DNA of 64,000 bases from Siderastrea siderea. Its lineage: Eukaryota > Cnidaria > Anthozoa > Scleractinia > Rhizangiidae. How positions within the stretch are numbered: position 1 is the first letter of the stretch; each line of letters opens with the position of its first letter. The stretch covers positions 19,466,365-19,530,364 of the forward strand of contig OZ034971.1 in NCBI GenBank assembly GCA_964030785.1, in the 5' to 3' direction. A program made the position numbers and the translations under genes. Below the pieces are notes generated by a model that made no database searches, was not told the origin of the DNA, and saw nothing but the letters and a program-made list of their open reading frames with translations. This document shows positions 4,947 to 60,250 of the stretch, in pieces.

Positions 4947-5069
4947 CTTTGGATGGGATCTGAGTGTTATAGTTGTCGTCAGTACAACACTCAATTTCAT
5001 ACTGCCACATCTTCCAACCTCCTTTACCTCTGAGATAACCACCAACAGCTGCACAAGCTGCTTTCTTAT
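4947..5069 (-). CDS. Gene 1, domain 4 exon B (cysteine-poor)
   Basis: A 123-nt exon, phase 1-1, beginning DKKAACAAVGG and containing EIECC, the LU-domain C-terminal signature. Two otherwise invariant cysteines are Tyr: the one before EIECC (QYEIECC) and the one in the final CN motif (NYNT). Donor AAAG/GTAACG. Together with its A exon this domain keeps fewer disulfide partners than the other copies, so it may fold poorly or differently. Confidence 0.65.
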
Positions 5070-5365
5070 CTAAATTTATCGGGTAAAACGATGGACGATA
5101 TGACTTTTTGAAGCATCAGTTTTGAAACCAACAAACAAGATGTGTCAGCATTTGGATTGAGCATATTAACGAGAACATTTGTAAAGAAGATAACATTTTG
5201 GACTCCAAAAGATGGGAATTGGGTGCATTAACGAGGAAAACGTGTTAACAGGGTTTTTAGATGAGAAAATCTCTGACCTTAACGGTATGGTCGCAAGTTG
5301 GGATTCCTCTGTTTTCCAGTGATCTTCCCACGCAGTTTTGCTCTCAAACAAAGACGTTTACTAAC

Positions 5366-5539
5366 CCGCACAATCAATGCACCCACGATAAAAGACACAA
5401 AAGCTGTACGATCTTCCCACAACAGAACCACAATGAGTTATCCCAAGTGAAGATCGATCTGAAGCACAAAACTGGGATCTAAGGCCGCCCAAACTATCTC
5501 TTCTATCGACACGACTAATACACTGTTTTGGACCAGAAA
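5366..5539 (-). CDS. Gene 1, domain 4 exon A (lost CxxC and third Cys)
   Basis: A 174-nt open exon with acceptor TATCTCACAG and donor GTTAGT. It reads SGPKQCISR at its start, where other copies have CxxC, and has no cysteine at the usual third position. It keeps SLGITHCGS and YRGCIDC near the end and gains one cysteine (SFC). The second and third cysteines are missing together; in canonical LU domains these two form the loop-I disulfide. It is shorter than the other A exons (195-198 nt). Confidence 0.65.
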
Positions 5540-7739
5540 CTGTGAGATAGAGAAATAAATAAAAGTTTTTTTGCAAGGTTTAATGTACAACCAAAGGGGA
5601 AGAGAACAGGAAATGCACTTTCTTTCTGGGTCCCACATATTTACCCTATAGAAAAGGGGAAGTGGGGCGGTATAGCAGGTCACACCTAGAAATGAATTCT
5701 ACAAATCTGATTTGATAGATACAGCTGTACTGGAATGCGTGCAGTCGCATTTTTTTGCTTCCCATGTTTTCTTTTTTTTGAAAGCTGGAAAGACTGTACG
5801 CCCGGCAGTCCGAAATGTTCAAAGAATCGCAAATATTCTATACAATCCCTACGTCTGCAATACAGACCCCTCTAATAATGCAGACATTTTAGTCTGTCCC
5901 TTTGGCGTCGTATAAAGGGAATTCTCGTCAGTTCATTGCCAGCGCCAAACAGTCACTTTATTTCTGTATAAGTGAGGACAAACTTGAACTGGATTGCACT
6001 TCAAAGGAGGGAAATTCGCTTTTGGAAGCTACTCCGGACCAGGCAAAAATTTGTCTAATACAACCGTAATCACAATTAGTAGCTGTTGTTATGTATTTCT
6101 GAGAGAAAAAAAAACCACAACAAAGCAAAACTCTGAAGGAAAAATTCAACATACTCCGATCGGACACATTATTTGAGTTTCCCACGCCGAAGTTCGTCTT
6201 AACCTGGTGCAGATCCAGTGCAAGCTTAGAAGCGGAGGACTTGGGGCATTTATTAGAACTTTAAACTTACAAGAACTCCTTCCACTTTGGAAATTTTTAC
6301 GCTCGACAAGGCAAACAGACTTCCATTACCGTTCAACTTATAACAAATAACAAAAACCACAATTGCACCTCAGCGAATCAATTAAGCTACAACAAAAAAG
6401 CGTGAGTGCTTCTTCACTTTGGGGATCGTTACGCTTAACGAGGCTGAAGGATTTTGGCATTTTATTACAACACGCGTTACATGTAAATCTACTTAAAATC
6501 CTCTGGCGATTCGAGTCATTTTGTCATTTCAGTGTTTCGTGCACAGGACAAGCCCTCAAGTGATAGCATGTTGCATAATTACAAGAAAATAACACAGTGG
6601 ACCTTGCGTGCGGCATTATTGCACCTCAGCTGAAAATCACAACAATCAAACACATTTAAAACCATACACTGCACTATCTCGCATCAAAGCTCTTTACAGA
6701 CGAGCTTCAGCAACTGATGAGGGATCCCTCGATAGGTTGGCGCATATAAGTTTGAAACAAAGTGGGTGCTTAACCTTTCTGATAAATCTTTATTCATCTT
6801 TCTCCCTTATCTTTCGCCGTCTCCCTAGTCAAATTACAAACTGACCGATCGCATAAAGGAAAACCATGACAGCGTTGCTCTAGATTTCTTCAAACAAAGC
6901 GCTACAATTAATTTTTACTCAAGAAGCAATCACAAGTAAACGCGAACGGGATTACCTTCTAACCAACGTAAATTAAATTGGCTTAAGGACACTACTCGAC
7001 CTCTGCACTCACTGTTACTGATTACTGACAGAAATGGGAAATCTGAAGGTAGAATTTAAACATAGTCCGATTGCAAGCTAATTTCATAAAAAAAAGCAGC
7101 GACCATAAACTCTTTCTATTAGAGTACCATAGCGTGCACGCAAACGTCTCTTATTTCCTTTGCACGCAGGCTAGAGTACCACCGCATGATCTCGAAGAAA
7201 ATAGATCGACACAGCTCGGACTGACGTGTTGTCATTTAATTACCCAATCACCATGCAGGGATTCGTTCAACTTGGCCTGAAGTCATAACTAGCTAATATC
7301 GTCACGCACGCTTTTATCAGCATGAACCAATCACCGTACAGCCCTTTATCACATCTTCCGATACCCACTTGCGCGCCTACTTTCCTGATACCACCGTACA
7401 GCTCCAGTAACGACAAATCGATATTTTTTCTGGTACATGAACTGTATATTCATACTGCAAGTACTTATAAGCGGGGACCTCAAGGATACTTCCTCGGGTT
7501 CCTTGGTCTCTGGGCCAAGACCCTTTTGTGGCAATTAAAATGCGCGGTGCATGGGCTCTTCGTTTTCATTTCTAAAAGCCAATGATGTTTCAAGAGCTCT
7601 CACTTCTTCGTGTTGCTTACACGTAGAGACGGAAACTCTAGGAAAGAGATTGGCATGTGAGGTGATAATGTTAAGTCTGAAACTTGAACTGAAAAGTCTT
7701 ACTCACACTCAGTCTATCAAATCTAAAGGTCCATATTAC
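5540..7739 (-). other. Gene 1 intron, about 2.2 kb
   Basis: Intron between domain 3 exon B and domain 4 exon A. I see no A- or B-type exon, no inverted-repeat element and no recognisable coding frame on either strand. Confidence 0.5.
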
Positions 7740-7898
7740 CTGATCGAGTAAACACCATAATTGATTTCGGTGATAGTGTCGGGACATGCGTGTTACAGTT
7801 GCTTCCAGTGCAGCACTCAATCTCACACTGCAGCAGGGTGACTTCACTGTTTTTTCCTTTCAAGTATCCACCAAGAGCAAAGCACGCCGTTTTTCTGT
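7740..7898 (-). CDS. Gene 1, domain 3 exon B (intact)
   Basis: A 159-nt exon, phase 1-1. It begins DRKTACFALGGYLKG, contains LQCEIECCTGSNCNTHVPTL and ends with a short linker including SIMVFTRS. All five expected cysteines are present. Acceptor CCAG and donor GTAATA. Its own A exon carries a stop, so it can be translated only if spliced to another A exon. Confidence 0.75.
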
Positions 7899-8235
7899 CT
7901 GGAAAAAAATAATGTAAAACAAAGCGGAAAACCACTAGAGTGCCACAAAGCGGCTATTTTGTTCCACCTAGTTCCAAACATATCACAAATGTATCGGTTC
8001 TAATTTAAGAACATGTTCAGCTTCTAAATAACCTATAAATTCATCAACACATAAATAAGAAACTAAAAACGTAAAAAAAACGACCAAAGAAACTAATTAA
8101 AGGCAAGAAACGAACAGGAATAAACGACAACAAAACAATAATGGCAATACTGGATATAAAAGACAAGGTACACAAAGGGTCAATGTTTCAAGCTATTCCA
8201 AGACTATTCCAGCTATAGTTTCATAACAACATTAC

Positions 8236-8418
8236 CGAAACAATCAATGCATCCACGATAAAATACATCCCGAACATTTCCAGACTAGTCCCAATATTTT
8301 CCAGCAGCGGAACCGTAATGAGAGAGGCCAAGTGATTTTGGGCCATATGATTCGAAACGCTGATTCTCTAAGCAACTCCCTGCATCACTTCCGAAACAGC
8401 CATAACATTTTGCTTGTC
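8236..8418 (-). pseudogene. Gene 1, domain 3 exon A with in-frame stop
   Basis: A 183-nt exon reading KCYGCFGSDAGSC, later SLGLSHYGSAAGKYWD, then TAG, and ending YRGCIDCFG. The canonical THCGS is HYGS, losing a cysteine, and the amber codon interrupts the frame before the last two cysteines. Splice sites still look usable (AAG acceptor, GTAATG donor). A dead exon if included. Confidence 0.75.
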
Positions 8419-8573
8419 CTTCCCAAAAAAAAAGAAGGAAGGAAAACAAGTGTCTTAGCTTAACTTAATTTATACACTTCCAAGAAGTTTTTATTTTTCT
8501 ATTTTGTATTTTTATTTCGTGGCACACCTGTAAACTAGCTTTTTAGCTAAGCGTGCCGACCACGTTAATAAAG

Positions 8574-8574
<1 letters not shown>

Positions 8575-8646
<72 letters not shown>
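8575..8646 (+). repeat. GATT tetranucleotide microsatellite
   Basis: About 17 nearly perfect GATT units in the intron between domain 2 exon B and domain 3 exon A of gene 1. Confidence 0.95.
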
Positions 8647-8647
<1 letters not shown>

Positions 8648-9255
8648 CAATAAATTCGAGCAAGAAAGGATGAAGGGGTTAGAGAGTTAATCTCCCATAT
8701 AGGCCCTATTCCCATATTTATCCCTCTAAAGTTATTTTTAGTAACACAATTCAAATGTCAAAACGTTATACCATTTGAGTAGATAAACATATTCCATTAA
8801 TTTTTTTTCAGTTTTGAGATCTGTGTAACGAGGTCACTCAGAAACCAACATAAGATATCCCATCATACTAAAAGCAAAATTTGGCGCCAACTTTGTGACG
8901 TCATTTTTCCGTCAAAAAATGTCAAAATTGGAAAAATTAAAATCACGAAATTTTACAGAATGACGAGTTCTATATTGTTGCGAAAATTCAGGGTAATTGC
9001 TTTAAAACTTAATAAGGTATTTGAAATTTAAATTTCTCATCATTTGTTCCTAAAAATAACGCGGATGAGGGAGTACCTGTCTTACCCTTTCATCCTCTCT
9101 TGATAAGTTCGAGCAAGTGCATTTGTGCTTAGCAAAATAAACATTGTTGCAATTCTTAGAACTTCTAATACTGTCATTCCTAGGACGTAGAAAGACGAAA
9201 ATCAGGTTTTATCCATATGTTGAATAAGAACGCTGGCTAACAAGCTGGGCTTTCA

Positions 9256-9440
9256 AGCAACTTACCCAGCAAGAAAATTCCATGTTGCAAGTTGAGCTGT
9301 TGAAGTATTCCTCGAACTCAATCTAAGAGTTGCTTTTGCCTATCGTGTCAAGCAACTTACCGAGCAAGAAAATTCCTTGTTGCAGCTGTTGAAGTATTCC
9401 TCGAAGTGAATCTAAGAGATGCTTTTGCCTATCGTGTCAA
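9256..9440 (+). repeat. Tandem duplication, about 92 bp unit
   Basis: Two adjacent copies share AGCAAGAAAATTCC, TTGAAGTATTCCTCGAA and TGCTTTTGCCTATCGTGTCA with few differences. Located in a gene 1 intron; non-coding. Confidence 0.7.
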
Positions 9441-9888
9441 TTAGCAAGCAACTCGATCGTACGCTTCTCTCTTGGTTTCTAGATTTCCTGCGTGCATCCA
9501 CAGTTAAGTGGACGTCACTGAGCATAAAACGGCTTTTAAATTTCTCACTAACAGCGACCGAGCTGGAGTTTCCTCTTTGTTAGAAGACAAATACCTTATC
9601 TACAACCATCAGCATTTATGTAACTCTTTCCAAAATGAAAGGAATTTTTCTATTAAACAAAAAAACACGCGATCTTAACAAACCGGTTTATTTTTCAAAG
9701 GGACATGATTGCTCCCCATTAAGCCAGCCACTCAGAATCTAATTCTCAATAGAACATAGTGAATAGCTATCGAGAGGAGTTGCAGAAATAAACGCAGAAG
9801 ATTAGACGAGCTCGAACTCTTCTATTTATGAATACTCTTCTTTTTTTAAATAACTTTCTCCATCCACACTGCAGTTGAGTCTTATTAC

Positions 9889-10001
9889 CTCTATCCATAT
9901 TGCAGAAGGTCCTATTGCAACACTCGATTTCACATTCTGTCACAGTTCCCATCCACTTGCTTTAAGATAGCCTCCGATTGCTCCACAAGCTGTAATTTTA
10001 T
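9889..10001 (-). pseudogene. Gene 1, domain 2 exon B, frameshifted
   Basis: Starts DKITACGAIGGYLKASGW in the expected phase, but the C-terminal half (VTECEIECCNRTFCNM) is in the next frame. Length is 113 nt, one short of a multiple of 3, so a single-base deletion lies near 9945-9960. Acceptor CCAG and donor GTAATA are intact. A mutation or an assembly error cannot be told apart here. Confidence 0.7.
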
Positions 10002-10640
10002 CTGGATAGATGAATAAAAAAGATTAGTCAAATTCCACGCTATTTTCAACTAAAAATCACTTCAGGAACTTACTTTCAAACCAGCTTGTATTTGAGGTCC
10101 GGCGTTATAGCTTGGTTAGCGGGTAAAATTTGGAGCACTGTTTTTATTTCAAATTTGGTATTCTGTGTGCGCTGGAGTTGTTATCTGGAAATAGCCCTTT
10201 TTTGCACAACACACCTTTCACATTTTTCTCCCTTGATTGGGAAAGGACAAGAACCTTGCCCAGTTTCCATGAGGTACTTGAAAAAATCCTTAAAAAATAA
10301 CCCTCGGGCGCACATGGGGGGAGGGGTAATGTGTGCCTCCCCCCTAGAAGTTTTTCTTCAATATTTTATCGAGAAGTTTTTTTTTTTAATCAACATCTGC
10401 TGTTTTCTGTAGCTGAACGCATATTCTTTAGATGTAAAAGTTTGGTAGGAATCGGTTCCTATGGTATCGAGAAATGACGTCAGAAGACGGCAACCATATT
10501 GGCTACCATGCTGGATGAAGTGACAGGTTCCCAGAAGTGCCATAAGTCATAAGGTCAAGTAATAAGTGCCGTAGACTTGAAATTGGAGCGAGAGTCTCTA
10601 CCTGTACGTTGCTTTTCTCTTTAAGTGAAAGTGTACTTAC

Positions 10641-10835
10641 CTGCACAGTTGATGCATCCTTTAAAAAATGCACTCTTGACGTAGGCAAATGTATCGTCCT
10701 GGCCTTTTACAACTGCCGTGCCACAGTGAGTCTTGCCAAGTGCATAATTAGAGGGGGTAGCGCAAGAATGGGTACTTTCACTGCAAGTAGCTGCATCGTG
10801 TTCAAGACATTCTCCACAAGCTTCTGGACCAGAGG
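10641..10835 (-). CDS. Gene 1, domain 2 exon A (intact)
   Basis: A 195-nt open exon with the full A-type pattern: SGPEACGEC, ATCSESTHSC, ALGKTHCGTAVV, FFKGCINCA. All seven A-exon cysteines are present. Acceptor TTTTTGACAG, donor GTAAGT. The best preserved A exon of gene 1. Confidence 0.8.
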
Positions 10836-11391
10836 CTGTCAAAAAGAAAAAAAAACAAAAAAAACAAACAATCAAAAAATGTTAGAAGATTAAATTTACC
10901 CTTTTTCTATGCCGATGTGTTAACCTAAGAGGGACGTTGGAAGAACACAAGGAATAACTTTTGAAAAAAAAACTTGTCAAGGAGACAGCGAATATATTCC
11001 AACACGATGATTGGTTGTCGTTTTCTCGTCACATCAATCACATGACGCGTAAATACCATTCACAGCTACCGGCTGAAAGTTGAATGAACACAATCTGTAC
11101 CAAAAAACACACACACCTAACAAAGCCAAGGGAAATTAAACCAAATAAAAGACCGGTGCCTTTTATTCAGAGGATGGAAATTGTAATTAAGAAACAAAAA
11201 CTGCGCATAGCATAGCTACCCAATTTATTGGTTGAGAAAGAGCAAACAATTTAACACGGGTTTGACCTATTAGTCCAAACTATTGTAAATAGGCATAATC
11301 GTGCTCTGTATTATACATTACCGCGCTCTACGTCGCGGTTACATGCCACTTCATAACAGTCGAATCATCATTAAAGTTTGACATTAATTAC

Positions 11392-11547
11392 CGTCTTTTG
11401 GAAACACAATAATTGCGTCTCGTGTCAGCTGCACATCCTGAGTGTTACAGTGGCTGCTGTTGCAACACTCGATCTCACATTGCAGCGCAAGCTCCGCTTT
11501 TGTCCATATTAGGTAGCCAGCAAGAGCAAAAACAAGCCGCTTTTTAT
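11392..11547 (-). CDS. Gene 1, domain 1 exon B with compensating indels
   Basis: A 156-nt open exon ending LQCEIECCNSSHCNT plus a linker to IIVFPKD, as in the intact copies. The start reads DKKRLVFALAG where others read DKKAACFALGG. One A is missing before GCGGCTTGT and one T is extra after it, so the frame is shifted for only a few codons and the first B-exon cysteine is lost. Acceptor CCAG, donor GTAATT. Confidence 0.75.
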
Positions 11548-12212
11548 CTGGAACAAAAGAAAAGGGATGTTTTACTTAGGGGAAACATATCATTGTCAGG
11601 ATAAAGCCTTTGTACCATTTGAAGCGTCCCTATAGTTCGTGCCTCTGTCCTAAAGACATTTTATCGAAGCTTGTTGTGACTCATTCTGTGACCCAACAAT
11701 TCGTAAGCGTCTCAAAGGGATCGCTTCCTTTAGCCTTCTCTGCGAATTTTTTATTCTTATTCACCACCACCGCTATTTTTTTAACATTTTTACTTCCCTG
11801 TATTTTCAATCAACTTTAAAAAGTTGAAGTTGAGGATAGGATCAGTGCCATTTCTTTTTATTTATTTTCTCCATTTTTTACCTTCCTGTATTATGAAAGC
11901 ACTCAAAAAAGTTGAAGTTCAGGATTAGATTGGACCATACTCCTAAAATTGCTAAATATAACTTAAATGAGGTATTCCTTAGGAGATCCGCTGATGGTGA
12001 GCAAGCCTACCGTGTCTACCTATGTATACACTGGGTGGTATCTTCCATTTGTTGCATAAGAAGCATCGAGTGAGAGGTAACATAACTAGACAGCTCAATG
12101 TGGATGTTTGCAGCGGTGCAGGCAGATCAGATTGTTAGCCGTTAGAAACAGTTTACAGCCAATGTAAATTTTCTTTAAAGTCTTGGGTCAACCGTCAAAA
12201 AAGTCAACTTAC

Positions 12213-12400
12213 CTTCGCAGTTAAAGCATCCTCGAAAAAAGCTAGTATCACCATCAAAGATAGAGAACCCTCCGTATTTGATTGCCACAGAAGCACAGTG
12301 AGTTGTGCATGGCTTAAGCACAAGTCTGGTTCCCGCTGATTGGCGGAGCAAGTGGCTGCGTCATGTCCAATACAAGAATAACACTGTGTCGGATTTCCAA
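12213..12400 (-). pseudogene. Gene 1, domain 1 exon A, frameshifted
   Basis: The 5' half reads VGNPTQCYSCIGHDAATC, the expected start. The 3' half (TTHCASVAIKYGG, then FFRGCFNCEG) lies in another frame. The exon is 188 nt instead of 186 or 189. The break falls near 12300-12320, just before the THC motif. Donor GTAAGT and acceptor TTACACAG are fine. Confidence 0.75.
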
Positions 12401-14387: not shown

Positions 14388-14433
14388 CAACCACATCTGC
14401 AAAGATTAAGATGACCGCAGGAAACAGCTTCAT
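14388..14433 (-). CDS. Gene 1 signal-peptide exon
   Basis: ATG followed by 15 codons reading MKLFPAVILIFADVV, a compact hydrophobic signal peptide. The exon ends in phase 1 at GTT G/GTGAGTAT, a strong donor. It matches the gene 2 first exon (MKLF..A..L.FA.DAV) and its upstream sequence is also similar (ending in a few A/C before ATG), so start choice is supported by the paralogue. Confidence 0.75.
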
Positions 14434-26838: not shown

Positions 26839-26921
26839 TTACATGACGTTAGCAAAGGCCACTGCTAAGGCAAGTGCTCCGATGAGCAAGATAAGTTGGA
26901 CATCTCTGGTAGCCCCAGCAT
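26839..26921 (-). CDS. Gene 2 terminal exon: GPI-anchor signal
   Basis: Behind the acceptor TTATCCCTTGCAG the exon reads DAGATRDVQ, then a hydrophobic stretch LILLIGALALAVAFANVM, then stop. Small residues (D-A-G-A) followed by a short polar spacer and a 15-18 residue hydrophobic C-terminus with no charged tail is the standard GPI-transamidase signal. A conventional transmembrane anchor is less likely because no cytoplasmic residues follow. Confidence 0.75.
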
Positions 26922-29900
26922 CTGCAAGGGATAAATTTCCGTTAGTTTGACATTTTATAAATAACACTAAATATGAACTTTGGGTACCGCATACAAAACC
27001 ACAAAGTCCGCTTCATCATCAACACAAAAATACCCACAAATATGTTATTTTACTTGCACCATATACAATTACGTCGTTTTGGAGCTAAAGATCATGGTTA
27101 TTGCATTTATGGCATTTTTATTGGTTCACCGCTCACAAGTTTCTTAGCAAATAACACAGGGCGCAGAGGAGTCATATTTGACCGTAATGCTGGCTAAATA
27201 TTCATCGTGCAAATCGATCTTGTTGATTCAAAACAATAAACGTGACTGAACAAAGCATCATGCTATCTGGGTACGCGTCTGGTGAAATGCCACCCGCATG
27301 ACGAAAACCGCATACAGCAGTTACTCTGGGCGTATCACCAGTAACTAACAGCCGACTAACAGTAAAGAAAGAGACAAGGGACGAAAGCAATTTCGGTCCA
27401 ATTTTCAATCCCCAGTAAATCGCCACACTTCGAACAAAAAGGCCTCGTTTTTGGCAGGTGCAATGAAAATAATACTTTCTACCAAGGCGGATTAAAAGTT
27501 TAATCAGAAAGTTCGTTAAATCTATAAACTTTTGGGGAGCGAATTTTTGGAGTTGAACGGCCCGCTTTCGTTCGATGTGAACCGGAGGATACCGGTGACG
27601 GAAATGCGTCATCAATTACATAACAAAGCATTATGTGCAGGATCGGAAGTGATTTTGACAGGTCGGTCTTTCAGAACATACGCAAAGCTTAGCAACGCTA
27701 TCCCGGGACGCGTAACAAGATAGCATGACGCTTTGTTCAGTCACGTTCAGTTGTTTTGAATCAACAAGATCGATTTGCGCGATGAATTTAGCCAGCATTA
27801 CGGACAAATCTGACTCCTCTGCGCCCTGTGATCGTATTTGATGTTGTTCAAAAGCCTTAAATAAAATACACTAAATATTTAGTCAAAGCTTCATGTTTAC
27901 ACCGATTGAGACTCAAAACATTTCACCAGAAAATCAGTTACTTCGCGTACTAAAATTTATCACCAATTTTTGAAGAGAGATTTCATTTCCAATTTCAATT
28001 TTTTCCTCATCTGTCCATTATCTTGCGGTAAATAGCGTTTTTCCGAAGAATGTTTCCCATCGTTGTACGAACTACCGGCTGATCAGTCAAGATCAGCTGT
28101 TGTTTTGAATTTGAATTGATTTCACTTCCTCTCAGCATGCAGAAAATCCTCTTCCGTTTCCGTCACCAGTGTGTTACGGTCCACATCGAACGAATCACGT
28201 GGTTTTGGTTTCTTCCCTTTTGGTTTTTTTCTTCGCGGCACTTCGTGCCTCGTTTCGGAAAGCTTCGCTTTCCGATAACGTCGCCCTTCGGGCGACCATT
28301 GTCGGCCTTTTGTCTTGCGGATACAATTTCACCAGACGCGTAACTACATAGCATGCTTTGTTCAGGCACGTTCATTGTTTTGAATTCAAAACAAGATCGA
28401 TTTGCGCGATGAATTTAGCCAGCATTACGGTCAAATGTGACTCCTCTGCGCCCTGTGCAAATAACACTACATTTGGCCTTGTAAGCAGTCTGATCAACTG
28501 ATGCGGTGTACAAAGTTTTGTGCAATCACACAACAAAAATGAGCAGCTTATATTTTCCTAAAGACCCTCCTCTTCCATGATATTTACTACCCTGTATGAG
28601 TCACAAATGTATTTTAATTTTCTTCGTCTTTTCAGTACTCAATAATAACAAAAGGAACTAAGAAATAGCAATGATTATAGTAATATAAAATAAACAACTT
28701 GAAGCTACGCACTTCGTTTATCCAACGTGCAATAGTGGGATTATTGAATTATTTTTCGGTAAACCGAAAGCTTACATGTTCACATTACCTTTGATCAGAG
28801 TTGGGATATGAGTGTTACAGAGTTCGCCCGTGCAGCACTCGATTTCGCACTCCAACTGAGTCCATTTTTGAACATTTTTACGGAAGCCACCTAAAGCCGC
28901 ACAAGCTGCCTTTTTATCTGAAAAGAATAAAAATCTATAAATTTGAAATGAATTTCTAACCACAAAGGAACAATTGGACGAAAACACTTCAGTTAGCCTT
29001 TCGTTTGTGTTGCCACAGCATTGCTAGTCGGTTAGGATAAGGTGACATATAATAAATGATAACCACAATAGCGGCAATCTTTCCAATAAAGGCGCGACTG
29101 GTCCGACTAGATTATGAGCTGCTACCTGTGGACCAGTTTATTGAAAAACTACTGTAATCAAGAATTTCAATAAAGTTAAAAGTTGAAAAGTTGAAGTTGA
29201 TGGTTGATTTTCGCCGAAATTCGCCAGGAAAAAAAAAACGGATGGGATTTACTTAAGAATATTTTTGTCCTTCTTGAACGAAATTAATTTTGTCAAACTG
29301 CAACAGGTGAATTTTGTTAAATAATTTTAGAATCCGTGTTACAACCAGGTTTTACTCTTGGAGATATTTACTGTATTCTAGAAGACCACATACTTATACG
29401 AAAACTGTGCAACGAACATTGCTTTATATAGAACTATAGAACTTTCTTTTTTCTCCTGAAGACGTTTTGTAGAATGTTTCCAGGCTCAAATGGCCAAGAA
29501 AAAATAATAATGACAACTCGACGTTTTTATAACTAACATTATCAATACGGCTCTACCTGAACTCGAAATTTCGATGTCCTTATAAAACAGAGCGACAGGA
29601 TGTACTTTATTTGACTCTTTTTTGTTTACATACCTGCACAGTTAATACATCCTCGAAAAAAGCCGTTCGCAGAATTTCCCTTACTGTCCAGATATCTTCC
29701 CACCGCCGAACCACAGTGAGTTGTACCAAGTGAGTATGGGTTTGTAGCACAAACTTGGACTTGCTGATTCTTTGAGCAGCTGGTTGCATCTTTTTCGAGG
29801 CAAACATTACACTGCGCTGGGCCAGAAACTGTGGATTAAAAAGAGTAAAGTGGTTGTCCAAGGTTATGTTTGCAGTTAATTGCAACAGTCATCGATACGA

Positions 29901-32900
29901 AAGAAAGAATTCTTACTAAGACGGTAAAATAACCTTGACATGCAATTTTTAAATGAGCTACGGATTTCCGTATTTTTTAATGTGCACAACGTTTCGTTTC
30001 GTTCTCACTGCTCTTAAAAAAGGAAGAATTGTGTTATCCAGTTGTTCGTGAGTGTGTTTTATGCCGTCTTAGCACAGTGTGGCTTTGAACAGTTGAAGCT
30101 ATTTAATTGTGAAATGAATGGATGTAACATGTACCTGGCTCAATGATTGTGATGTGTTATTTCTCTAAATGCAAAAAATTAATATGCTCAATTTACCTGT
30201 TGGTGTAAACACAGTTACTGCAGCTGGCAGGAGAGATTGGTTTTGATAGTTACAGTTGATACCACTACAGCACTCGATGTCACATTGCAGCACGGTCGTA
30301 TGTCCAACATTCTGAACATCTCCTTTGTAGAAGCCTCCAAGAGCAAAACACGCCGCTTTCTTATCTGGAGCCGCGTTAAATAAAACAAAGAAAGTTTTGA
30401 ATTAAAAAAATGCGAAGAAAGTTTTCTAAAAAAACATTTACTGTTTTTCGTCAAAAAAAGAAACTTAAGATTCATATTTCCAAAGAAAAGGGAATATGGC
30501 TTTATTGCCCTTCCAGGGTTTGCGCGTTTATATTCGACGAATATCCTAACGCAATGCATTGTTTGAACTTTTGGACGGTCATCTCAAAGGTAAATTTAAA
30601 GTCCTCACAAGCTTTGAGTTGATAATCGATCGAAGGGTCATACCCCTAGCATCTTATTGTGTTTCTAGTAAAGGTTCGATGGTATCCACATCCACCTGGG
30701 TAACAAAAGAAAAGATTTCTTGTCTAAGGCAAATAGTACGACACAATGCAGGTGCCAGGCTTAAGCTGCGGACTATTTCATCAAAAGAACATTGGAGCGT
30801 GTAAAATTAGCTAACCACTAACCCATCGCGCCCCTTATCATCTGAGACAAACCTTAAGTCTGTGATAAAACTAACAATAAAAATTGCTAGATGCCGCTAT
30901 TTCATGGACTTAAATATTGATACATACAAGAAGGTACCTGAAAGTTCTTCGGCAATAAAAAGAAACTTTTACTTACCCTCACAGTCAAAGCATCCTCGAT
31001 AAAAGAAATCTTGGACAAGCCCATTCTGACTGCGATATTTACCAACAGCGGAACCACAGTGGCTTGCACCAAGTGATTTTTGGTCAAGGGGACAAATTTG
31101 GCGCTTCTGTGTCGAAGAGCAACTGGCTTCATCACGTTCCATGCAATGATTGCACGTTGTTAAATCTTTAGCTGTCAGGGGAAATATACAGAGAAAAGAA
31201 GAAAGCTTTCAACAGTGATCATGCTCTGTCGCAAAAAAATTAATTGATTAGGCTGGTGAACCAATAGCTGTTATTACAGTTGATCCTGCGGTCCAATTTC
31301 CTTCTGTTTCAAAAGGACGCGCAAACGATGCCAGTGGGTCAATATCATGCGATAAAAGGCACAATGACCCACTAGCCTCGTTTGTGTGGCAAAACCGCTG
31401 ATAACTGTAATAACAGCTATTGTAAAGTAACACCATAGGATGTCCGCTCAAAAAAACATGTACATGCGCGAATAAAAATAATCAATCTATTAATTACAGT
31501 TCTCTTCTTTGCAGGAAGAGAACTTGGTAAAAGGTACACATTAAACACCTGTTGTAATAGCGTAGCCCACGTGCTAGCGCGTCAGCGGAGCACCATTGCT
31601 AAGGAAATTTGGTACCCTTTCAAGCCAAGAAATTTTGGTAGTGACGTAATAGCGGAGCCTGCGGGCAAAGCCCGCCAGCGGAGCTCCGTTGCTAAGCAAA
31701 TTTGGTAACCTATCGATCCAAGAAATTTTGGTTGTGACGTAATAGTCGCGTGCCCGTCCGTCCGTCCGTACGTACGTACGTCCGTCTGTCCGAACGCACA
31801 GACTCTGCGGGAGGGGGAGGGTATTTCCAAGACAACCCGACAGTGGGGTAGAGAATGCCATCTTTTCTTGGCGGGAAATCGCGCGGTGCTTTTGGGCAAC
31901 CGGCGTTTTTCTTGGCGGGAAATCGCACGACCATCGTCGCTTTTGAAAAAGAGGTTTCTTTAAAGGCTCAAACTTCTTTAGCAAAACGATTGTACGAGAG
32001 TACTGAAGTACTTGACAAAAAAAATCTAATATCTATAAATGGAAAGAAAAAGTTCAAAAGAATACTGGTAGAAGGCGAAAAGTTCAAGTTACAAAAGCTG
32101 CCTTCAAAGGACTTCATCGCTTTGTTTTCTTCACGGCGGAGAGCTTACCCTGTTGTGAAACAACCGAGTAAGTGAAGTTTTTAAAGGGTCTAAGGTATAT
32201 GATTTTGAGTATTACGGTCAAAGAAATTACATTTTAAAATGGGAATTTAATTTATGTCATTAGAAATGTGTCATTCACTTTTGACTTTAAAAAAAATATT
32301 AGAAAACGCGCTCAGATTTGTAACAGATGTAGTTTTAAATATTTTGCCATGCTCAGACGATTTCACTTGCGTGGACGGATCCACGATTTTGGAAGTGTAA
32401 CGCGAATTGCATTTAAGTATAAACTTACGGGTTTTCGAATAAACTTTTTTCCAAAATGATTTCTCTGTCCATTATTTTGTGTTTGTTTTTTCATGACGGT
32501 AGGTCTAAGCACAGTCGCAAGACAACTAGCTGCACAAGCATAACTTCAGTGAGATTACGACGAATAATTGCTTTCAGTACATCTCTTTGACGTGCAATTG
32601 TCGATTTTCTTGTCCTAGAAGTTTTCAATAGTAATAACCTTTTAAGCGAAGCAGTTGTCGGTTTAAAGCTATTTTATCCCAAAAGCTTCCGAAAACAGTT
32701 TTGTGCGTTCCTCAAAGCGGGTAACTTTATATAGGCTTACTTCGCATCCGCAAAACTTATGCCGGCATAATTTAAAGCGTGTTTGGTGTTTGTTTGTTTG
32801 TTTGTTTGTTTTGAATCTTGATGGTCTCTACTGAGTTAGAGAACAAAAAATAACAGTTATTAAAAAAAATTATAAGCGAAGCAGTTGTCGGTTTAAACCT

Positions 32901-35900
32901 ATTATATCCGAAAAGCTTCCAAAAACAATTCTGTGCATTTCTTACAGCGCTCAAATTTAAAACAATTTGCAGGACTATTTTTAAGAAACGAACACCAATT
33001 TATTCCTTGGCGGCTCCGCTTTTGGGCTTGGCTAAATCTATATATTAGACACTTGACCATCCGTCCGTCCGTCCGCATCACAGGATCACCAATATGAAGT
33101 GGCATACACTGGATATAACCCGAAATCGCATGTTGACCTGCGTTGTAGCAAAAGCAGAGACAACAAAAGTCAAAAACAAATTTGTTAATGGAAAAAAAGT
33201 TCAAAAGAATACTCAGTTGTCTTTTTGGTGGAAGGCGAAAGGTTCAATTTAGGCGAAAGAAATTAGGCGATAAAGTTCAGGCAAAAAGTTTAAATTTGCC
33301 TTGTCGGTTCTGTTGTGAACTCGATCGGCACACCGCTTGAGTTCCCAGCTTCTCGCAGTGGTTTTGACGCCAAATATAGCAGAGCTAGTGCTTTTTTTGG
33401 CCAGAGCTAGAGCTAGAGCTAGTGCTTTTTTTGGCCAGGAAAAACACCAGCATTTTCATGTTGATAGGTAGCTTGTCACGAAGAAAGAAGTAAGTAGTAA
33501 CATTAACAACTGGGGACAACAATAAACGCTCATGGCCTAGTGGATTAATCGCCTGCTTTTGACGCCGTCGATCCGGATTCGGCTCTCAGCGCGGACATGA
33601 ATATCTTCTTTCTTTTTTTTTATTTAACGACTTGAATGAGAGTATTTTCACAAATTCAGTTAATAAGTGCCAGCAAAAAAAAGGGGGGGGCCGCTTTTAG
33701 GCTTGGCTACATCTATATATTATTTATAAATCAAGAAATATCTCATTATTTTTCCTTTTTACCTCCATCGTTACAGTAGCTACCATTGCAGCACTCAATG
33801 TTGCATTCCAACAATGTCCCGTACAATCGACGATATTTAAGAGATCCAGCAATTGCTGCACAAGCTGCCTTTTTATCTGCAACGGCCAATGCACAAAATA
33901 AAAATAAAATAAAATCAATCAAAACAATAAATCAATCAATCAATAACTAAAAATAAATAAATTGCGGTACTTTTCAATAACATACAGCTGTTTTTTTATC
34001 AGAATGGACATCTGCTTCGACATTGACATAAACAAATTACCCACATAATAAACATTTTACTTATCTCCAATAACTTTTTATACAACTGCAGCACTGATAA
34101 ACTTTATTAAGTTAATATGTTTATGTTTGCCCGTTAGAGGCCATTTTACAGCAAGAATTGATATAGACAGTGGCAAAATTTGCATTAGTCTAATGACACC
34201 AGCACTGTGATGTGAGGCCGTTGTACAATAAATAATTGAACAGATACGTTGACATTGAAAAGCAACATTGACATAGACATTGACGTTAATATCAACATAA
34301 ACAACAACAATAACATCGACCTTGGGGTTAACATTGACAATGATAAGGACATCAACATAGACATTAACACCACTAGGGGGGGTCAGGGGGGTTAAACCTC
34401 CCGCTTCCCATACCCTTTAATCCCGGTTTCCACCCTGTACTTGTTGGCTCCCACGTCTTTGTATTTTTTCGATTGCGAAATATTGCGTAATGTTGCGTAA
34501 TTTTTCCCTTTTTCTCCTGCTTCCTGCCACCTTTGTCAATAATCCATCTTCCCCCCACCCCTCTTCTCCCGCCTCCAGTACACCTCTTGTCCCTTTTTTC
34601 CGCTCTCCCGCCCCCTGTCCCTCTCCACATTACGTTCAATCACTCCGATCACTGGCCCACCTGCACAGTCGATACATCCTCGAATTACACTAACATTAAT
34701 ACTTCCAGACAGGACGTCCCGAAATTTAATTGTAGCTGAACCACAGTGAGTTTCTCCAAGAGAATAGGAATCGTCGCGGCACGTTTGGGTATCCTGTTGC
34801 AGAGTGCAAGTGTCTGCATCATTTTCAAGACATTTGTAGCATTTTGCTGGACCGGGAGCTGTTAAAATAAAAGCAAAAGAAAAAATGTTCAACATATTGA
34901 AAAAATTAAAAAATCATTGCACAAGTTTTAAAATCGTAAACGAGTTTTGGCATTCAGAAAATGTCATCCACAAGGCAAAGAGTTTCCTTAAGGGTACGAA
35001 TTTTTTACGCATATACTAATCTTAAAATATCTATTCTGCAACTAATTGTTGAAATTGTTTCAGTTTCTTTGTGCCACGCCGTCTTCATGCCGTCAGATGA
35101 AACGGATTGTTATGTCATGACATTGTAGGACATTATAACTACAACAAGTAACAAAACCATAGTTTCTTTACATTTGCATCTATTCATAATTGAAAATAGA
35201 AGCGCGCAGACATAACATTTATAAATAAATCAACATAAAGGTGTATTACCGTCTGGTGTAAACACAGTGATTGCATTTTCTGACAGGGTCGTGACGTTGG
35301 TGTTACAGTTGCTGCCATTACAACACTCTACCTCACATTTTAGCACGATCCAATCTCTCCTGGTTCTCAGATAGCCACCAAGAGCAAAGCACGCTGCTTT
35401 TTTATCTGGAACAAGAAAAAGATTTCAGGATAAATTGTAACTGTTTTCGGAACAAAAATAAATTTACATAATGGTTTGGAGGCGCAGGATACATGTATCG
35501 CTAGCAATAATTGTAGATCAGACGCCTGTTCTTCTCCATTGTGAGCCAATCTACAAGATGATCTTCAATTGATTGTCTTGTAATCAAAGCTCTGACCAAT
35601 AACAACCTGCGAAAAAAAAACCAGGTTCTCTTTTACATCGCAATCACAAAGCATACTTAAGCATGGTCAAAACGTGATCAAAGCAAACCGTGTATCAAAA
35701 GCAAATATTTGTCAAAACCTATTTGGGGGGAGGGGCATTCCCCATAATGCTGTCTACCAAAAGGTAAAATCGGGTCCATCACCAAACCCCACCCCTACCA
35801 TCACCGCCACCACTCCTTGTACCACAGTGGGAGTATGACTTAGCTTGTACGTCAATTTGCTATGCCTTGCTAGATATCAAAAAACATCATGCTGTCCTTT

Positions 35901-37953
35901 AAATAATGCTCTATTCTTAGTTTTTATTCTTATGATGAAATGAGTTTGCTTGCGTGGGCAACATTCAGAAACAGAGGAGTATAACAGTAGGTAAAAACGA
36001 ACAATGACAACAATCTCCGGGTCTATAGTACTCTTCAGAAGGAAGTTACCGAGAAAATAATTGTCATGGAAACAATCAATGAACTTACGGATTACAGTCC
36101 CTGGAGCCACAACTCACACTTAATGAGAAGACATTTGTTACGGTATTATGACTGGACTGAGCTACCATGACGAATTAGATCAAACTTTACTATTTATTTG
36201 TAAATCCAAGTTATGTCTTGACATGAAACTTTCCTTGAAGATTTATCTCGCCAGCACCTTGTATATAGTAAAAGGGCACCCTTGTGGTGGCCTTTAAGTT
36301 TACATTTTAGAATTTTGATGACGACACACAAAAAAATCAGCAATTCTACTGTCGTAAATGATTCGTCCTTGAAAGTAAAAAGTCCGTACTTGGCATCGGA
36401 AATTTGAACTGATAAATTCATAATAACATATGCAATATCTTTCATTAAAAGCATACTTACTCGTACAGTCAAAGCATCCTCTAAAGAAATAGTTGTTTAC
36501 AGAACTACTCCATGTTGCCCGGTATTGTATTGCCGCTGAACCACAATGAGTTGTGCCCAGTGAATAAGGATCTGTGGCACATTTTTGGTTTTGCTGGCTA
36601 GTGCTGCAGTATCCTTGAAAATTTTCGGAACAGTAAAAGCACTGTGTCGGACCGGCAACTAGGGAAAAAATACATATTAAATTTTAGTGGCAAGACGAAA
36701 GAAGTCATGGTGGCTGGAAAAATGATTTTTTATTTCGTGGTTTCAATTATCAGTCCAGCAAGAGATACGAGTAATAAAGAAACGAGATTATCTTTGAAAA
36801 ATTCCTGAGAACAGAGACTGACAAGACAAAGAAAGTTACAGAATCAGATTTAACTTCTTTGTTGTTTAACGTCAAGAGAAACATTTTGGTGAAATAAAAT
36901 ACAAAGGTATCGTTGCAAAAAATATTTAAAACATTTTTCTTTAAAAAAAAAAACAAGCAAAAAAGCGTCAACAGCCACGGGATGTCCAGTCCGTGGGACG
37001 GTTGCTGTCTAAGTATTAGGTATTCGTTATAAAACGCTCGATGAATGTTCATTAAAGGACGTCAAAAACAAATTGCTTGGAATGGAAGTTAGTGACAAGG
37101 GTTCAACGGTAGACCGGTATTTTAGCCCAATACCTTCTTCGTTATACCTTTTTGCCTGTTCCGGTTAATACAAACATTGTTTAACAGGAATGAGTATAGT
37201 TTCTGTATGGAGCATGGTAGACAAACCTTTTTATGTCTATTTTAAATGTCGAGAAAAAATAACTAAAATTATGAAAGGAGCATTGAGGTTGCTGCAAGTT
37301 GTTTTAGTTTTCCCAGATCCATATCCTGGTAGTGCCTTAGTGGTGAAATCTTGCCGTTTCAATGAACTAACAGAGAAGATCAGCCGGCCGAGCTTCAAAA
37401 CATTGCCCCTCTTTCAACTAAACACAGACGCTACGGCTATAAGTAAGCCAGTCAGTAAATCAGGTAGTTAGTCAGTCTTTCAGTCAGTCAGGCAACCAGT
37501 CAGTCAGTCAGTCAGTCAGTCAGTCTGTAAGACGGCCAGCCAGCTAGTCAGTCAGTCATTCAGTCATGAGACAACCAGCCAGCCAGCCAGTCAGTCAGGC
37601 AATTAGTCAGACAGGCAGTTTAGTCAGTCGGTCAGTCTGTCAGACAAACAAGCAGTTAGTCATTCAGACAGTAGGTCAGTCAGTTAGTCCGTCAGGCAGC
37701 CAGCCAGCTAGTAAGTCAGTTAGTCAGTCAGCCAACCATCCAATCAGTCAGTCAGTAAGTCAGCCAATCAGTCAGTTAGTCAATCAAGCCTTATTCAGAA
37801 AGGTAATTAATAGTAAGCAGTGCATAACTTAACAACCGTGTATATGCAAATTCAACGCACAGTTTCGGTCACGAACAAGTGTGAAATAAAGCAACTCGTA
37901 TACTCACAAACGGCGTCACCAGCAAATAGGAGGATCGCAAGAAACAGCTTCAT
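26839..37953 (-). CDS. Gene 2: four-domain Ly6/uPAR-like (three-finger) GPI-anchored protein
   Basis: Ten exons on the minus strand: signal 37953-37908; A 36658-36461; B 35405-35250; A 34858-34661; B 33876-33763; A 31171-30977; B 30364-30197; A 29828-29634; B 28917-28789; anchor 26921-26839. All junctions are phase 1 with GT/AG sites. Every internal exon is a multiple of 3 and the total (1482 nt) gives one open frame of about 493 aa. Each A/B pair has the pattern CxxC...C...C...THCGSA...F.RGC.DC then DKKAAC...L.C.IECC....CN, 12 cysteines per typical domain. Established for the family: LU domains are extracellular disulfide-rich ligand-binding modules, and uPAR has the same layout (signal exon, two phase-1 exons per domain, GPI tail). 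A GPI-anchored cell-surface receptor or inhibitor is inferred; the ligand is unknown. Confidence 0.8.
27156..28456. mobile_element. Mutator-like TIR element with 9-bp target duplication
   Basis: Both ends start ACAGGGCGCAGAGGAGTCA and remain inverted copies for about 145 bases, to ACGCGTCTGGTGAAAT. The flanks are identical 9-mers GCAAATAAC (27147-27155 and 28457-28465). A 9-bp duplication with long TIRs is typical of Mutator-like elements. A second copy of the right end lies inside at about 27716-27829, so the element is compound. It contains GC-rich hairpins (GTCGCCCTTCGGGCGAC) and no transposase. It sits in the last intron of gene 2. Confidence 0.65.
28789..28917 (-). CDS. Gene 2, domain 4 exon B
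   Basis: 129 nt, phase 1-1: DKKAACAALGGFRK, then LECEIECCTGELCNTHIPTL. All five B cysteines are present. Acceptor AG before ATAAAAAGG, donor GTAATG. Joins directly to the GPI exon. Confidence 0.85.
29634..29828 (-). CDS. Gene 2, domain 4 exon A
   Basis: 195 nt: SGPAQCNVCLEKDATSC, QVQVCATNPYSLGTTHCGSA, GFFRGCINCAG. Seven cysteines. Acceptor TTTAATCCACAG, donor GTATGT. Confidence 0.85.
30197..30364 (-). CDS. Gene 2, domain 3 exon B with linker
   Basis: 168 nt: DKKAACFALGGFYKGDVQ, VLQCDIECCSGINCN, then a linker ending AAVTVFTPT that leads into the next domain. Five cysteines. Acceptor CCAG, donor GTAAAT. Confidence 0.85.
30977..31171 (-). CDS. Gene 2, domain 3 exon A
   Basis: 195 nt: TTCNHCMERDEASC, RQICPLDQKSLGASHCGSAV, FFYRGCFDCEG. 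Seven cysteines. Acceptor CCTGACAG, donor GTAAGT. Confidence 0.85.
31262..31422. repeat. Foldback element in a gene 2 intron, 161 bp
   Basis: Perfect 20-bp terminal inverted repeats, CAATAGCTGTTATTACAGTT and complement, with a second inner inverted pair (AGTGGGTCAAT / ATGACCCACT). It lies about 90 bases 5' (in gene sense) of the domain 3 A exon. Confidence 0.7.
31559..33048 (+). repeat. tRNA-headed repeat family, copy 1
   Basis: Begins with GTGCTAGCGCGTCAGCGGAG and GCTAAGGAAATTTGGTA (this first block is itself duplicated at about 31578 and 31668), then a GTCC-rich microsatellite at 31757-31790, GGCGGGAAATCGC motifs, and ends with the family signature CTTGGCTAAATCTATATATT. A 70-bp unit beginning AAGCGAAGCAGTTGTCGGTT occurs twice (32643 and 32873). 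Non-coding; located in the large central intron of gene 2. Confidence 0.6.
33050..33722 (+). repeat. tRNA-headed repeat family, copy 2
   Basis: Starts CCATCCGTCCGTCC, contains CGAAATCGCATGTTGACC, ATTAGGCGATAAAGTTCAGG and CCAAATATAGCAGAGCTAGT, a tRNA-like segment near 33530-33595 (ATGGCCTAGTGG ... CCGGATTCGGCTC), and ends CTTTTAGGCTTGGCTACATC. It directly follows copy 1 and ends 41 bases from the domain 2 B exon of gene 2. Confidence 0.6.
33763..33876 (-). CDS. Gene 2, domain 2 exon B
   Basis: 114 nt: DKKAACAAIAGSLKYR, LLECNIECCNGSYCN, then DG and donor GTAAAA. Five cysteines. No linker after the CN motif, unlike domains 1 and 3. A transposable repeat ends just beyond its donor. Confidence 0.8.
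34000..34372. repeat. Degenerate ACATTGACAT-type minisatellite
   Basis: Many imperfect copies of ACATTGACATAGAC and variants, densest at 34240-34370, in the intron between domain 2 A and B exons. The short frame through it is repeat-derived. Confidence 0.55.
34661..34858 (-). CDS. Gene 2, domain 2 exon A
   Basis: 198 nt: APGPAKCYKCLENDADTC, TQTCRDDSYSLGETHCGSA, VIRGCIDCA. Seven cysteines. Acceptor TTTTAACAG, donor GTGGGC (the weakest donor of the gene). A long pyrimidine-poor, GGGA-rich tract follows the donor on the minus strand. Confidence 0.85.
35250..35405 (-). CDS. Gene 2, domain 1 exon B with linker
   Basis: 156 nt: DKKAACFALGGYLRT, VLKCEVECCNGSNCNT, then a linker ending ITVFTPD, closely like the domain 3 linker. 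Five cysteines. Acceptor CCAG, donor GTAATA. Confidence 0.85.
36461..36658 (-). CDS. Gene 2, domain 1 exon A
   Basis: 198 nt: VAGPTQCFYCSEN-type start, GYCSTSQQNQKC, PYSLGTTHCGSAAIQYR, FFRGCFDCT. Seven cysteines. Acceptor TTTTTTCCCTAG, donor GTAAGT. The signal exon donates T, making the first residue Phe. Confidence 0.85.
37440..37790 (+). repeat. CAGT/CAGC tetranucleotide microsatellite
   Basis: About 350 bases of imperfect GTCA units with CAGC variants in intron 1 of gene 2. A plus-strand frame rich in Ser-Gln-Pro-Val runs through it but is repeat-derived. Confidence 0.9.
37908..37953 (-). CDS. Gene 2 signal-peptide exon
   Basis: ATG then MKLFLAILLFAGDAV, a short cleavable signal peptide; donor T/GTGAGTAT in phase 1. 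Upstream, on the minus strand, TTACCTCACAG lies about 25 bases before the ATG and could be a 3' splice site for a 5' UTR intron. Confidence 0.8.
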
Positions 37954-60100: not shown

Positions 60101-60250
60101 GAGATTCTATTGCAGATCATTCCTCTCAAGGTTATTGGTAACAACGGAAGGAGTATCACTACTTACAGCCTCGTAGATTCAGGCTCCGATGTGACAATGA
60201 TTGATCCATCCCTTATCAAACAGCTCGAGATTCAAGGTGAAACTGTATCT
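57189..60250 (+). pseudogene. BEL/Pao retrotransposon gag-protease region, frameshifted and interrupted
   Basis: In order on the plus strand: an N-terminal helical part (RLNKAFTLEKERRKRQ), then after a frame change near 57400 VDYANLVKVKSVQSTLDKAW; a charged coiled coil (about 57760-57960); a Ser/Thr/Pro repeat (58089-58658); a DUF1759-like gag segment (VVKFDGSPENYPMFRQRFRQ) at about 59080-59300; a double zinc-knuckle region (CPMCGRSHPLYRC, ICFNC) with CGKPHHTLLH at about 59755-59955; and an aspartic protease motif LVDSGSDVTMID at about 60170-60210. This is the BEL/Pao order. Several frame changes (near 57400, 58000, 59320, 59960) disable it. RT, RNase H and integrase are absent: a Penelope-like element begins right after the protease. 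Confidence 0.75.
58089..58658 (+). repeat. 30-bp coding minisatellite in gag (19 units)
   Basis: Nineteen consecutive 10-residue units of the form STQAYTLPAV, each 30 bp with an AAGCTT core, in one open frame. A higher-order pattern is visible: the four-unit block APPVL-ASPAV-TLPSV-TLPAV recurs as APPTL-ASPAV-TLPSM-TLPSV. The product would be a Pro/Thr/Ser-rich disordered spacer between coiled coil and gag core. Confidence 0.9.

What the first reader, a model, noticed from the sequence alone, without database searches (positions are those of the whole stretch)
26839..37953. Four-domain, 12-cysteine LU (three-finger) protein with a GPI tail and fully symmetrical exons
Seen: ten exons on the minus strand with correct splice sites, every internal exon divisible by 3, all junctions phase 1, giving one frame of about 493 residues. 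Known: vertebrate uPAR has the same gene logic with three domains. New here: four domains, each with 12 rather than the usual 8-10 cysteines, including a conserved THCGSA and GC(I/F)(D/N)C-DKKAAC stretch spanning the exon junction. Inference: an invertebrate surface receptor family that grew by duplicating two-exon cassettes.
Basis: partly seen in the sequence, partly recalled or inferred. Interest (0 to 1): 0.75.

Follow-up and report, generated by a model that had tools for sequence, protein, structure and literature searches.

The report
Coral skeleton protein with four uPAR-like domains
The finding is a real stony-coral gene, one of a tandem family related to the known but uncharacterised skeletal protein USOMP-2, and it encodes four uPAR-like three-finger domains that may hold the skeleton-making cell layer to the skeleton matrix.

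Summary
In detail: all ten exons, splice sites, phases and end coordinates are right (493 residues, four domains of 12 cysteines, signal peptide, hydrophobic GPI-type tail). The gene is a paralogue of the Acropora skeletal protein USOMP-2, which has the same plan. Predicted structures of two homologues, one about 91% identical, give LU folds: all Foldseek hits with E<=0.001 are uPAR, CD177 or C4.4A. Paired cysteine losses in three domains suggest bonds 7-10 and 8-9; one domain contradicts. Claims of novelty weaken: CD177 also has four LU domains and a GPI tail; 12 cysteines occur in 35 of 36 other LU domains parsed from this genome; USOMP-2 is named. New: the intron inside each domain precedes the loop-3 helix instead of sitting at the tip of loop 2; the gene lies in a tandem array of four-domain copies, one decayed in this window; two literature searches found no paper linking USOMP-2 to LU domains. 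Likely role (inferred): calicoblastic-surface adhesion protein shed into the skeleton.

The parts
37908..37953 (-). exon 1, signal peptide (MKLFLAILLFAGDAVF)
   Evidence: homologues start alike (P0004 MKLFLGIILIVVDVVVAS); similar stretches in the array
36461..36658 (-). exon 2 (A1), first part of LU domain 1, 7 Cys
   Evidence: A-exon profile 86 bits
35250..35405 (-). exon 3 (B1), second part of LU domain 1, 5 Cys, long linker
   Evidence: B-exon profile 71 bits
34661..34858 (-). exon 4 (A2), LU domain 2
   Evidence: 90 bits; joins as in P0001
33763..33876 (-). exon 5 (B2), LU domain 2, short linker
   Evidence: 59 bits
30977..31171 (-). exon 6 (A3), LU domain 3
   Evidence: 95 bits
30197..30364 (-). 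exon 7 (B3), LU domain 3, long linker
   Evidence: 60 bits
29634..29828 (-). exon 8 (A4), LU domain 4
   Evidence: 105 bits
28789..28917 (-). exon 9 (B4), LU domain 4
   Evidence: 64 bits
26839..26921 (-). exon 10, GPI-type hydrophobic tail and stop
   Evidence: tail nearly the same in P0001; mean hydropathy 2.91 over 15 residues, no charge in or after that core
4947..12400 (-). decayed tandem copy: eight exons in the same order, A1' 12400-12213, B1' 11547-11392, A2' 10835-10641, B2' 10001-9889, A3' 8412-8236, B3' 7898-7740, A4' 5539-5366, B4' 5069-4947
   Evidence: AG and GT borders present at all eight, but reading-frame breaks in A1' and B2', a stop in A3', cysteines missing in B1', A3', A4' and B4'
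14407..14433 (-). possible signal-peptide exon of the decayed copy (weak)
   Evidence: 85% over 27 nt to exon 1, E 0.002

Best explanation
A working member of the coral USOMP-2 family: a secreted, GPI-anchored chain of four 12-cysteine LU (Ly6/uPAR) domains. Shown by sequence: gene structure, family, purifying selection, tandem array. Predicted: LU fold, GPI anchoring, bonds 1-5, 2-3, 4-6, 7-10, 8-9, 11-12 (the first three and the last by analogy). Inferred: made by the calicoblastic (skeleton-facing) epithelium, displayed on its surface through the GPI anchor as a disulfide-stiffened adhesion rod whose exposed loops bind matrix partners, then shed and trapped in the growing aragonite, where its Acropora relative is found. 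It would join cell and skeleton rather than nucleate mineral, since it is not acidic (computed pI about 7.0, Asp+Glu 9%, Lys+Arg 9%; USOMP-2 is listed with pI 5.9).
For: Family. P0003 has 505 aa, 51 Cys and 10.49% Cys after a 19-residue signal; USOMP-2 B7WFQ1 is listed with 505 aa, 10.5% Cys, SP 1-19 (PMC4043741 table) and the A. digitifera Cys-rich SOMP with 51 Cys, 10.49%, tandem repeats and four CC blocks (PMC4890752). An A. cervicornis protein named SOMP 2 is identical to P0003 for 65 residues, up to the end of exon A. Fold; Pfam UPAR_LY6 26 bits, cut-off 24.8; profile comparison with other LU domains of the genome 95.9%, E 5.9e-9. Bonds: 7 and 10 lost together in P0011; 8 and 9 in P0038 and in the partial P0041. 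Place: USOMP-2 is listed in the Acropora skeleton proteome; Pdcyst-rich, a single-LU GPI-type coral protein, was immunolocalised to calicoblastic cells (PMC2728513). PMC4043741 argues that membrane-bound matrix proteins are cleaved and occluded. Selection.
Confidence: 0.66

Rival explanations
1. A true uPAR-like surface receptor: it captures a secreted protease or growth factor at the cell surface and signals through partners; presence in skeleton is incidental trapping.
For: Closest solved folds are uPAR, CD177 and C4.4A. The family predates the skeleton if it is in corallimorphs. Coral studies report or cite 'uPAR' transcripts changing with sediment, temperature or salinity (passages of PMC10836209 and PMC3650039).
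Against: No ligand known; a shared fold shows no function; introns and linkers differ from uPAR and CD177. In PMC3650039 uPAR did not respond to the treatment. Whether those 'uPAR' transcripts belong to this family was not tested.
Confidence: 0.21
2. A fast-evolving recognition family (self, microbe or algal symbiont) expanded by tandem duplication.
For: Array of four-domain copies with decay of one; LU genes often lie in clusters.
Against: dN/dS over whole domains is 0.19 to 0.47 in the seven gene pairs computed, the highest with the decayed copy; no site test was run. Domains 2-4 keep their positional kin across corals.
Confidence: 0.1
3. The window copy is a recent pseudogene or a misjoined model.
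For: One neighbour in the window is decayed; the copies at -41 and -66 kb lack some cysteines in the matched parts.
Against: All frames, splice sites and 48 cysteines intact; dN/dS 0.28; spliced-looking relative P0001.
Confidence: 0.02

Closest known systems
USOMP-2 (B7WFQ1, Acropora millepora; A. digitifera Cys-rich SOMP)
   Same: Four repeats, about 50 Cys, signal peptide, same domain order; P0003, taken as its Acropora form, is 57% identical over 99% of the window protein and models as four LU domains
   Different: Paralogue in a local array; D1 of P0002, P0003 and P0004 lacks the third cysteine at its usual place and has one nearby
CD177
   Same: GPI-anchored, four LU domains; Foldseek E 1.8e-6 to the P0003 model
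   Different: Three or four disulfides a domain, domains packed as 1+2 and 3+4 with a 20-residue linker between the pairs; here 23 residues follow D1 and D3 and 8 join D2 to D3, counted from CN to the next C
uPAR (PLAUR)
   Same: GPI-anchored tandem LU domains, phase-1 two-exon sets
   Different: Three domains, the first lacking the 7-8 bond; intron at the loop-2 tip
LYPD6 / LYPD6B
   Different: Single domain; the exact place of the extra bond was not compared
Pdcyst-rich (Pocillopora damicornis)
   Same: Coral LU protein, GPI-type end, calicoblastic cells
   Different: One domain, 147 residues; sequence not compared here

Membership tests
LU (Ly6/uPAR) domain | 10 plesiotypic cysteines and Asn after the last (PMC6600238) | tested here: met
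   all 4 domains have 12 Cys, C-x2-C at the start and CC-x4-CN at the end; which ten are the plesiotypic ones is an assignment
LU (Ly6/uPAR) domain | three-finger fold | tested here: met
LU (Ly6/uPAR) domain | Pfam UPAR_LY6 above the curated cut-off | tested here: met
   whole protein 26 bits against 24.8; D4 alone 17.7, D1 alone none
LU (Ly6/uPAR) domain | disulfides 1-5, 2-3, 4-6, 7-8, 9-10 | tested here: inconclusive
   co-loss supports 7-10 and 8-9 in the 12-Cys numbering (3 domains), one domain contradicts; the others were not tested
vertebrate-type multi-LU gene (PLAUR, CD177) | phase-1 exon sets of two exons a domain | tested here: met
vertebrate-type multi-LU gene (PLAUR, CD177) | intra-domain intron at the tip of loop 2 | tested here: not met
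   junction at P0001 residues 72, 175, 296, directly before the helices starting at 73, 176, 297; the gaps between strands 3 and 4 (loop-2 tips) are 54-58, 157-161, 278-282
vertebrate-type multi-LU gene (PLAUR, CD177) | GPI signal in the last LU exon | tested here: not met
   separate exon 26921-26839
USOMP-2 | sequence homology over the full length with four repeats | tested here: met
   that P0003 is B7WFQ1 or its near relative rests on length, Cys count, signal length and the A. cervicornis fragment, not on the database sequence
USOMP-2 | present in the skeletal organic matrix | not testable with these tools
   reported for Acropora, not for this gene
GPI-anchored protein | cleavable C-terminal signal | tested here: inconclusive
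   tail composition only; no predictor was on hand

The most novel reading that the evidence does not exclude
Corals built a uPAR/CD177-like multi-LU surface protein independently of vertebrates, from a cassette whose internal intron sits at a different place, and turned this family of tandem LU proteins into the adhesive link between calicoblastic cells and the skeleton, expanded as a gene array.
Probability: 0.4. Interest if true: 0.68.

Novelty: new member of a known kind. Interest (0 to 1): 0.45.

Why it matters
USOMP-2 is carried in coral calcification studies as an 'uncharacterised' skeletal protein. Placing it among LU proteins gives a fold, a disulfide map, a likely membrane anchor and testable partners, and links it to an older report of an LU protein in calicoblastic cells. 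The shifted intron would make the multi-LU architecture a case of parallel evolution. The window gene itself is an ordinary paralogue.

Tried and rejected
Sequence searches against solved structures found no LU relative; the hits, OsWRKY45 and a monooxygenase, look like chance, so the fold evidence rests on predicted models. A domain-length protein search (12 hits) showed no clear single-domain full-length relative and none named Pdcyst-rich. Duplication of a two-domain block (1+2 to 3+4) was considered because the linkers alternate 23, 8, 23 residues, but within-protein identities do not favour 1-3 and 2-4 (window: 1-2 52%, 1-3 49%, 1-4 55%, 2-3 44%, 2-4 54%, 3-4 53%): unresolved. One duplication of the neighbouring pair of genes was considered, but dS differs (0.15 and 0.29): not shown. 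Pfam side hits in family members (BrkDBD, a deaminase at E 0.00053 in 2 of 17 members, and others) were set aside as not shared by the family. Pfam found nothing in five ORFs elsewhere in the window.

Counts and rows dropped: of 56 PF00021 matches in the genome (the tool calls such counts lower bounds) 40 were fetched; left out were the three with a stop inside and 13 others at the weak end. The LU core was parsed in 36 of 40 (no parse: L027, L036, L039, L044); two pairs among the 36 are identical (L012/L013, L018/L019); one of 36 has 11 cysteines. The 56 are whole-domain matches, so domains split by an intron would be missed; nothing about their introns follows. Of 122 domain hits in found proteins 116 spanned the columns; many are half-domains cut at the exon border and say nothing about bonds. 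The tree has 99 columns for 60 rows and an unsettled bootstrap, as its output warns. P0005 and P0010 (and P0020, P0021) were left out of the first structure alignment, and P0005, P0016, P0020, P0021 and others of the second.

Full report
1. The observation. One search located and spliced the ten exons. The product has 493 residues, four domains of 12 cysteines each, nine phase-1 introns and eight symmetric internal exons. Exon profiles built from 52 coral domains without this gene, P0001 or P0022 find all eight LU exons at 58.9-104.9 bits; the highest score in 20 simulated windows was 11.8 bits, with the profiles, which include this gene.

2. Whose gene. The protein search returned 21 proteins, a second with a domain 12 and a third with an alignment 53. 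In these lists every hit with an organism name comes from a stony coral (Montipora, Porites, Pocillopora, Oculina, Desmophyllum, Acropora); many have no name, and only the candidates sharing most words were scored. Several are called 'skeletal organic matrix protein 2'. P0003 fits the published Acropora USOMP-2 in length (505), cysteines (51; 10.49% of the mature chain) and signal length, and a named A. cervicornis SOMP 2 model is identical to it for 65 residues, up to the end of exon A, where it runs on into other sequence. That run-on, and 12 domain hits that hold just the A part and 10 that hold just the B part, suggest that the intron place is shared by other corals.

3. Transcripts by proxy. 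P0001 (365 aa, 91% identical) lies on a contig of 2,189 bases but covers what takes 8.4 kb in the window; P0022 (190 aa, contig 1,406 bases) joins exons B3, A4 and B4 of a neighbouring gene whose exons are spread over 8.9 kb in this genome (98%, 91%, 98% identical). Both therefore look spliced. No RNA data for the window locus were on hand.

5. Cysteines. Of 122 domain hits in the found proteins, 75 have all twelve. P0011 lost 7 and 10, P0038 lost 8 and 9, and the partial P0041 also lacks 8 and 9. This suggests bonds 7-10 (the usual 7-8) and 8-9 (extra, helix to last strand). P0045 (8 and 12 lost) does not fit; P0010 lacks 11 and 12 at what looks like a truncated end. Twelve cysteines are not peculiar to this gene: 35 of 36 LU domains parsed elsewhere in the genome have twelve, and one locus read out in full codes for three such domains and a hydrophobic tail in one open frame. 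Profile comparison links the two kinds (95.9%, E 5.9e-9), though its alignment pairs cysteine 8 here with the seventh there, so the match of cysteines 7 and 8 between the kinds is not settled.

6. Gene logic. The LU review says that the intron inside the domain falls at the tip of loop 2 and that the GPI signal is in exon 3 of the typical gene (PMC6600238, passages). Here the intron falls right before the second helix (P0001 residues 72, 175, 296 against helices starting at 73, 176, 297), and the tail has its own exon. So the cassette is built in the vertebrate manner but is not the same cassette. A tree of 60 domains puts window domains 2, 3 and 4 with those of the same position in Montipora, P0003 and P0004 (supports 98/98, 99/94, 97/89; domain 1 unresolved): the four-domain form probably predates the split of these corals.

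7. Neighbours. The window holds a second, decayed four-domain copy on the same strand (4947-12400). Fetching 100 kb on either side and scanning with exon profiles showed, in window coordinates, a two-domain copy on the plus strand near -90 to -88 kb, four-domain sets at -66 to -54, -41 to -36 and 95 to 120 kb, and one from 139 kb running off the fetched stretch. The decayed copy is 93% identical to the -66 kb gene, the window gene 89% to the -41 kb gene. dN/dS is 0.28 (window against -41 kb) and 0.33 (against 95-120 kb); the seven pairs computed range from 0.19 to 0.47, the highest being that with the decayed copy. The -41 and -66 kb copies lack some cysteines in the matched parts, so they may be partly eroded.

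8. Role. USOMP-2 is listed in the Acropora skeleton proteome. A 2009 study found a single-LU coral protein, Pdcyst-rich, in calicoblastic cells, its transcript 101-fold down after 12 days of warming (PMC2728513, passages). PMC4043741 proposes shedding of membrane-bound proteins into the skeleton. From this I infer a surface-anchored adhesion rod. Against a purely skeletal role, PMC6824150 reports that USOMP-2 first appears in corallimorphs. Searches of the held library for USOMP with Ly6 gave 0 papers, and for 'skeletal organic matrix' with uPAR 1 paper that does not connect them in the passages seen; Pdcyst-rich occurs in 2 papers. Subscription journals are mostly not held, so this does not prove that the link is unpublished; some database entries in the family are named 'Sodefrin-like factor', a three-finger name (recalled), and P0001 carries a precomputed UPAR_LY6 match.

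9. Papers. These were seen as passages found by term: PMC2728513, PMC3650039, PMC4043741, PMC9570262, PMC6824150, PMC4890752, PMC4839075, PMC6600238, PMC13022285, PMC10836209; none was read whole.

Noticed in passing
window 4947-12400 (-), and 14407-14433 for a possible first exon: Decayed four-domain tandem copy with splice borders present, 93% identical to a gene about 60 kb away.
   Followed up: yes
G000:C3, many at 24.1-25.7 Mb (L001-L048): LU domains each in one open frame, 12 cysteines; one locus (L002, 345 aa frame) has three in a row and a hydrophobic tail: a possible intronless uPAR-like family in coral.
   Followed up: partly
window 27155-28457: Intron 9 holds an element with inverted ends (45 nt, 98%, plus further arms) and an internal copy of one end, perhaps a non-autonomous DNA transposon.
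   Followed up: no
window 31554-31745: Two copies of a unit of about 93 bases, 84% matches, in intron 5.
   Followed up: no
window 58059-58668: 30-base tandem repeat, 20 copies, open in a plus-strand frame.
   Followed up: no
window 59448-62230 (+): ORFs that look like pieces of retroelements (cysteine knuckles; reverse-transcriptase-like), a guess from the letters; Pfam gave no match at E<=0.001.
   Followed up: partly
window coordinates about 81715 and -12776 (outside the window, in L060 and L057): A copy of the signal-peptide exon and one of the tail exon with no LU exon found close by: possible remains of further gene copies.
   Followed up: no
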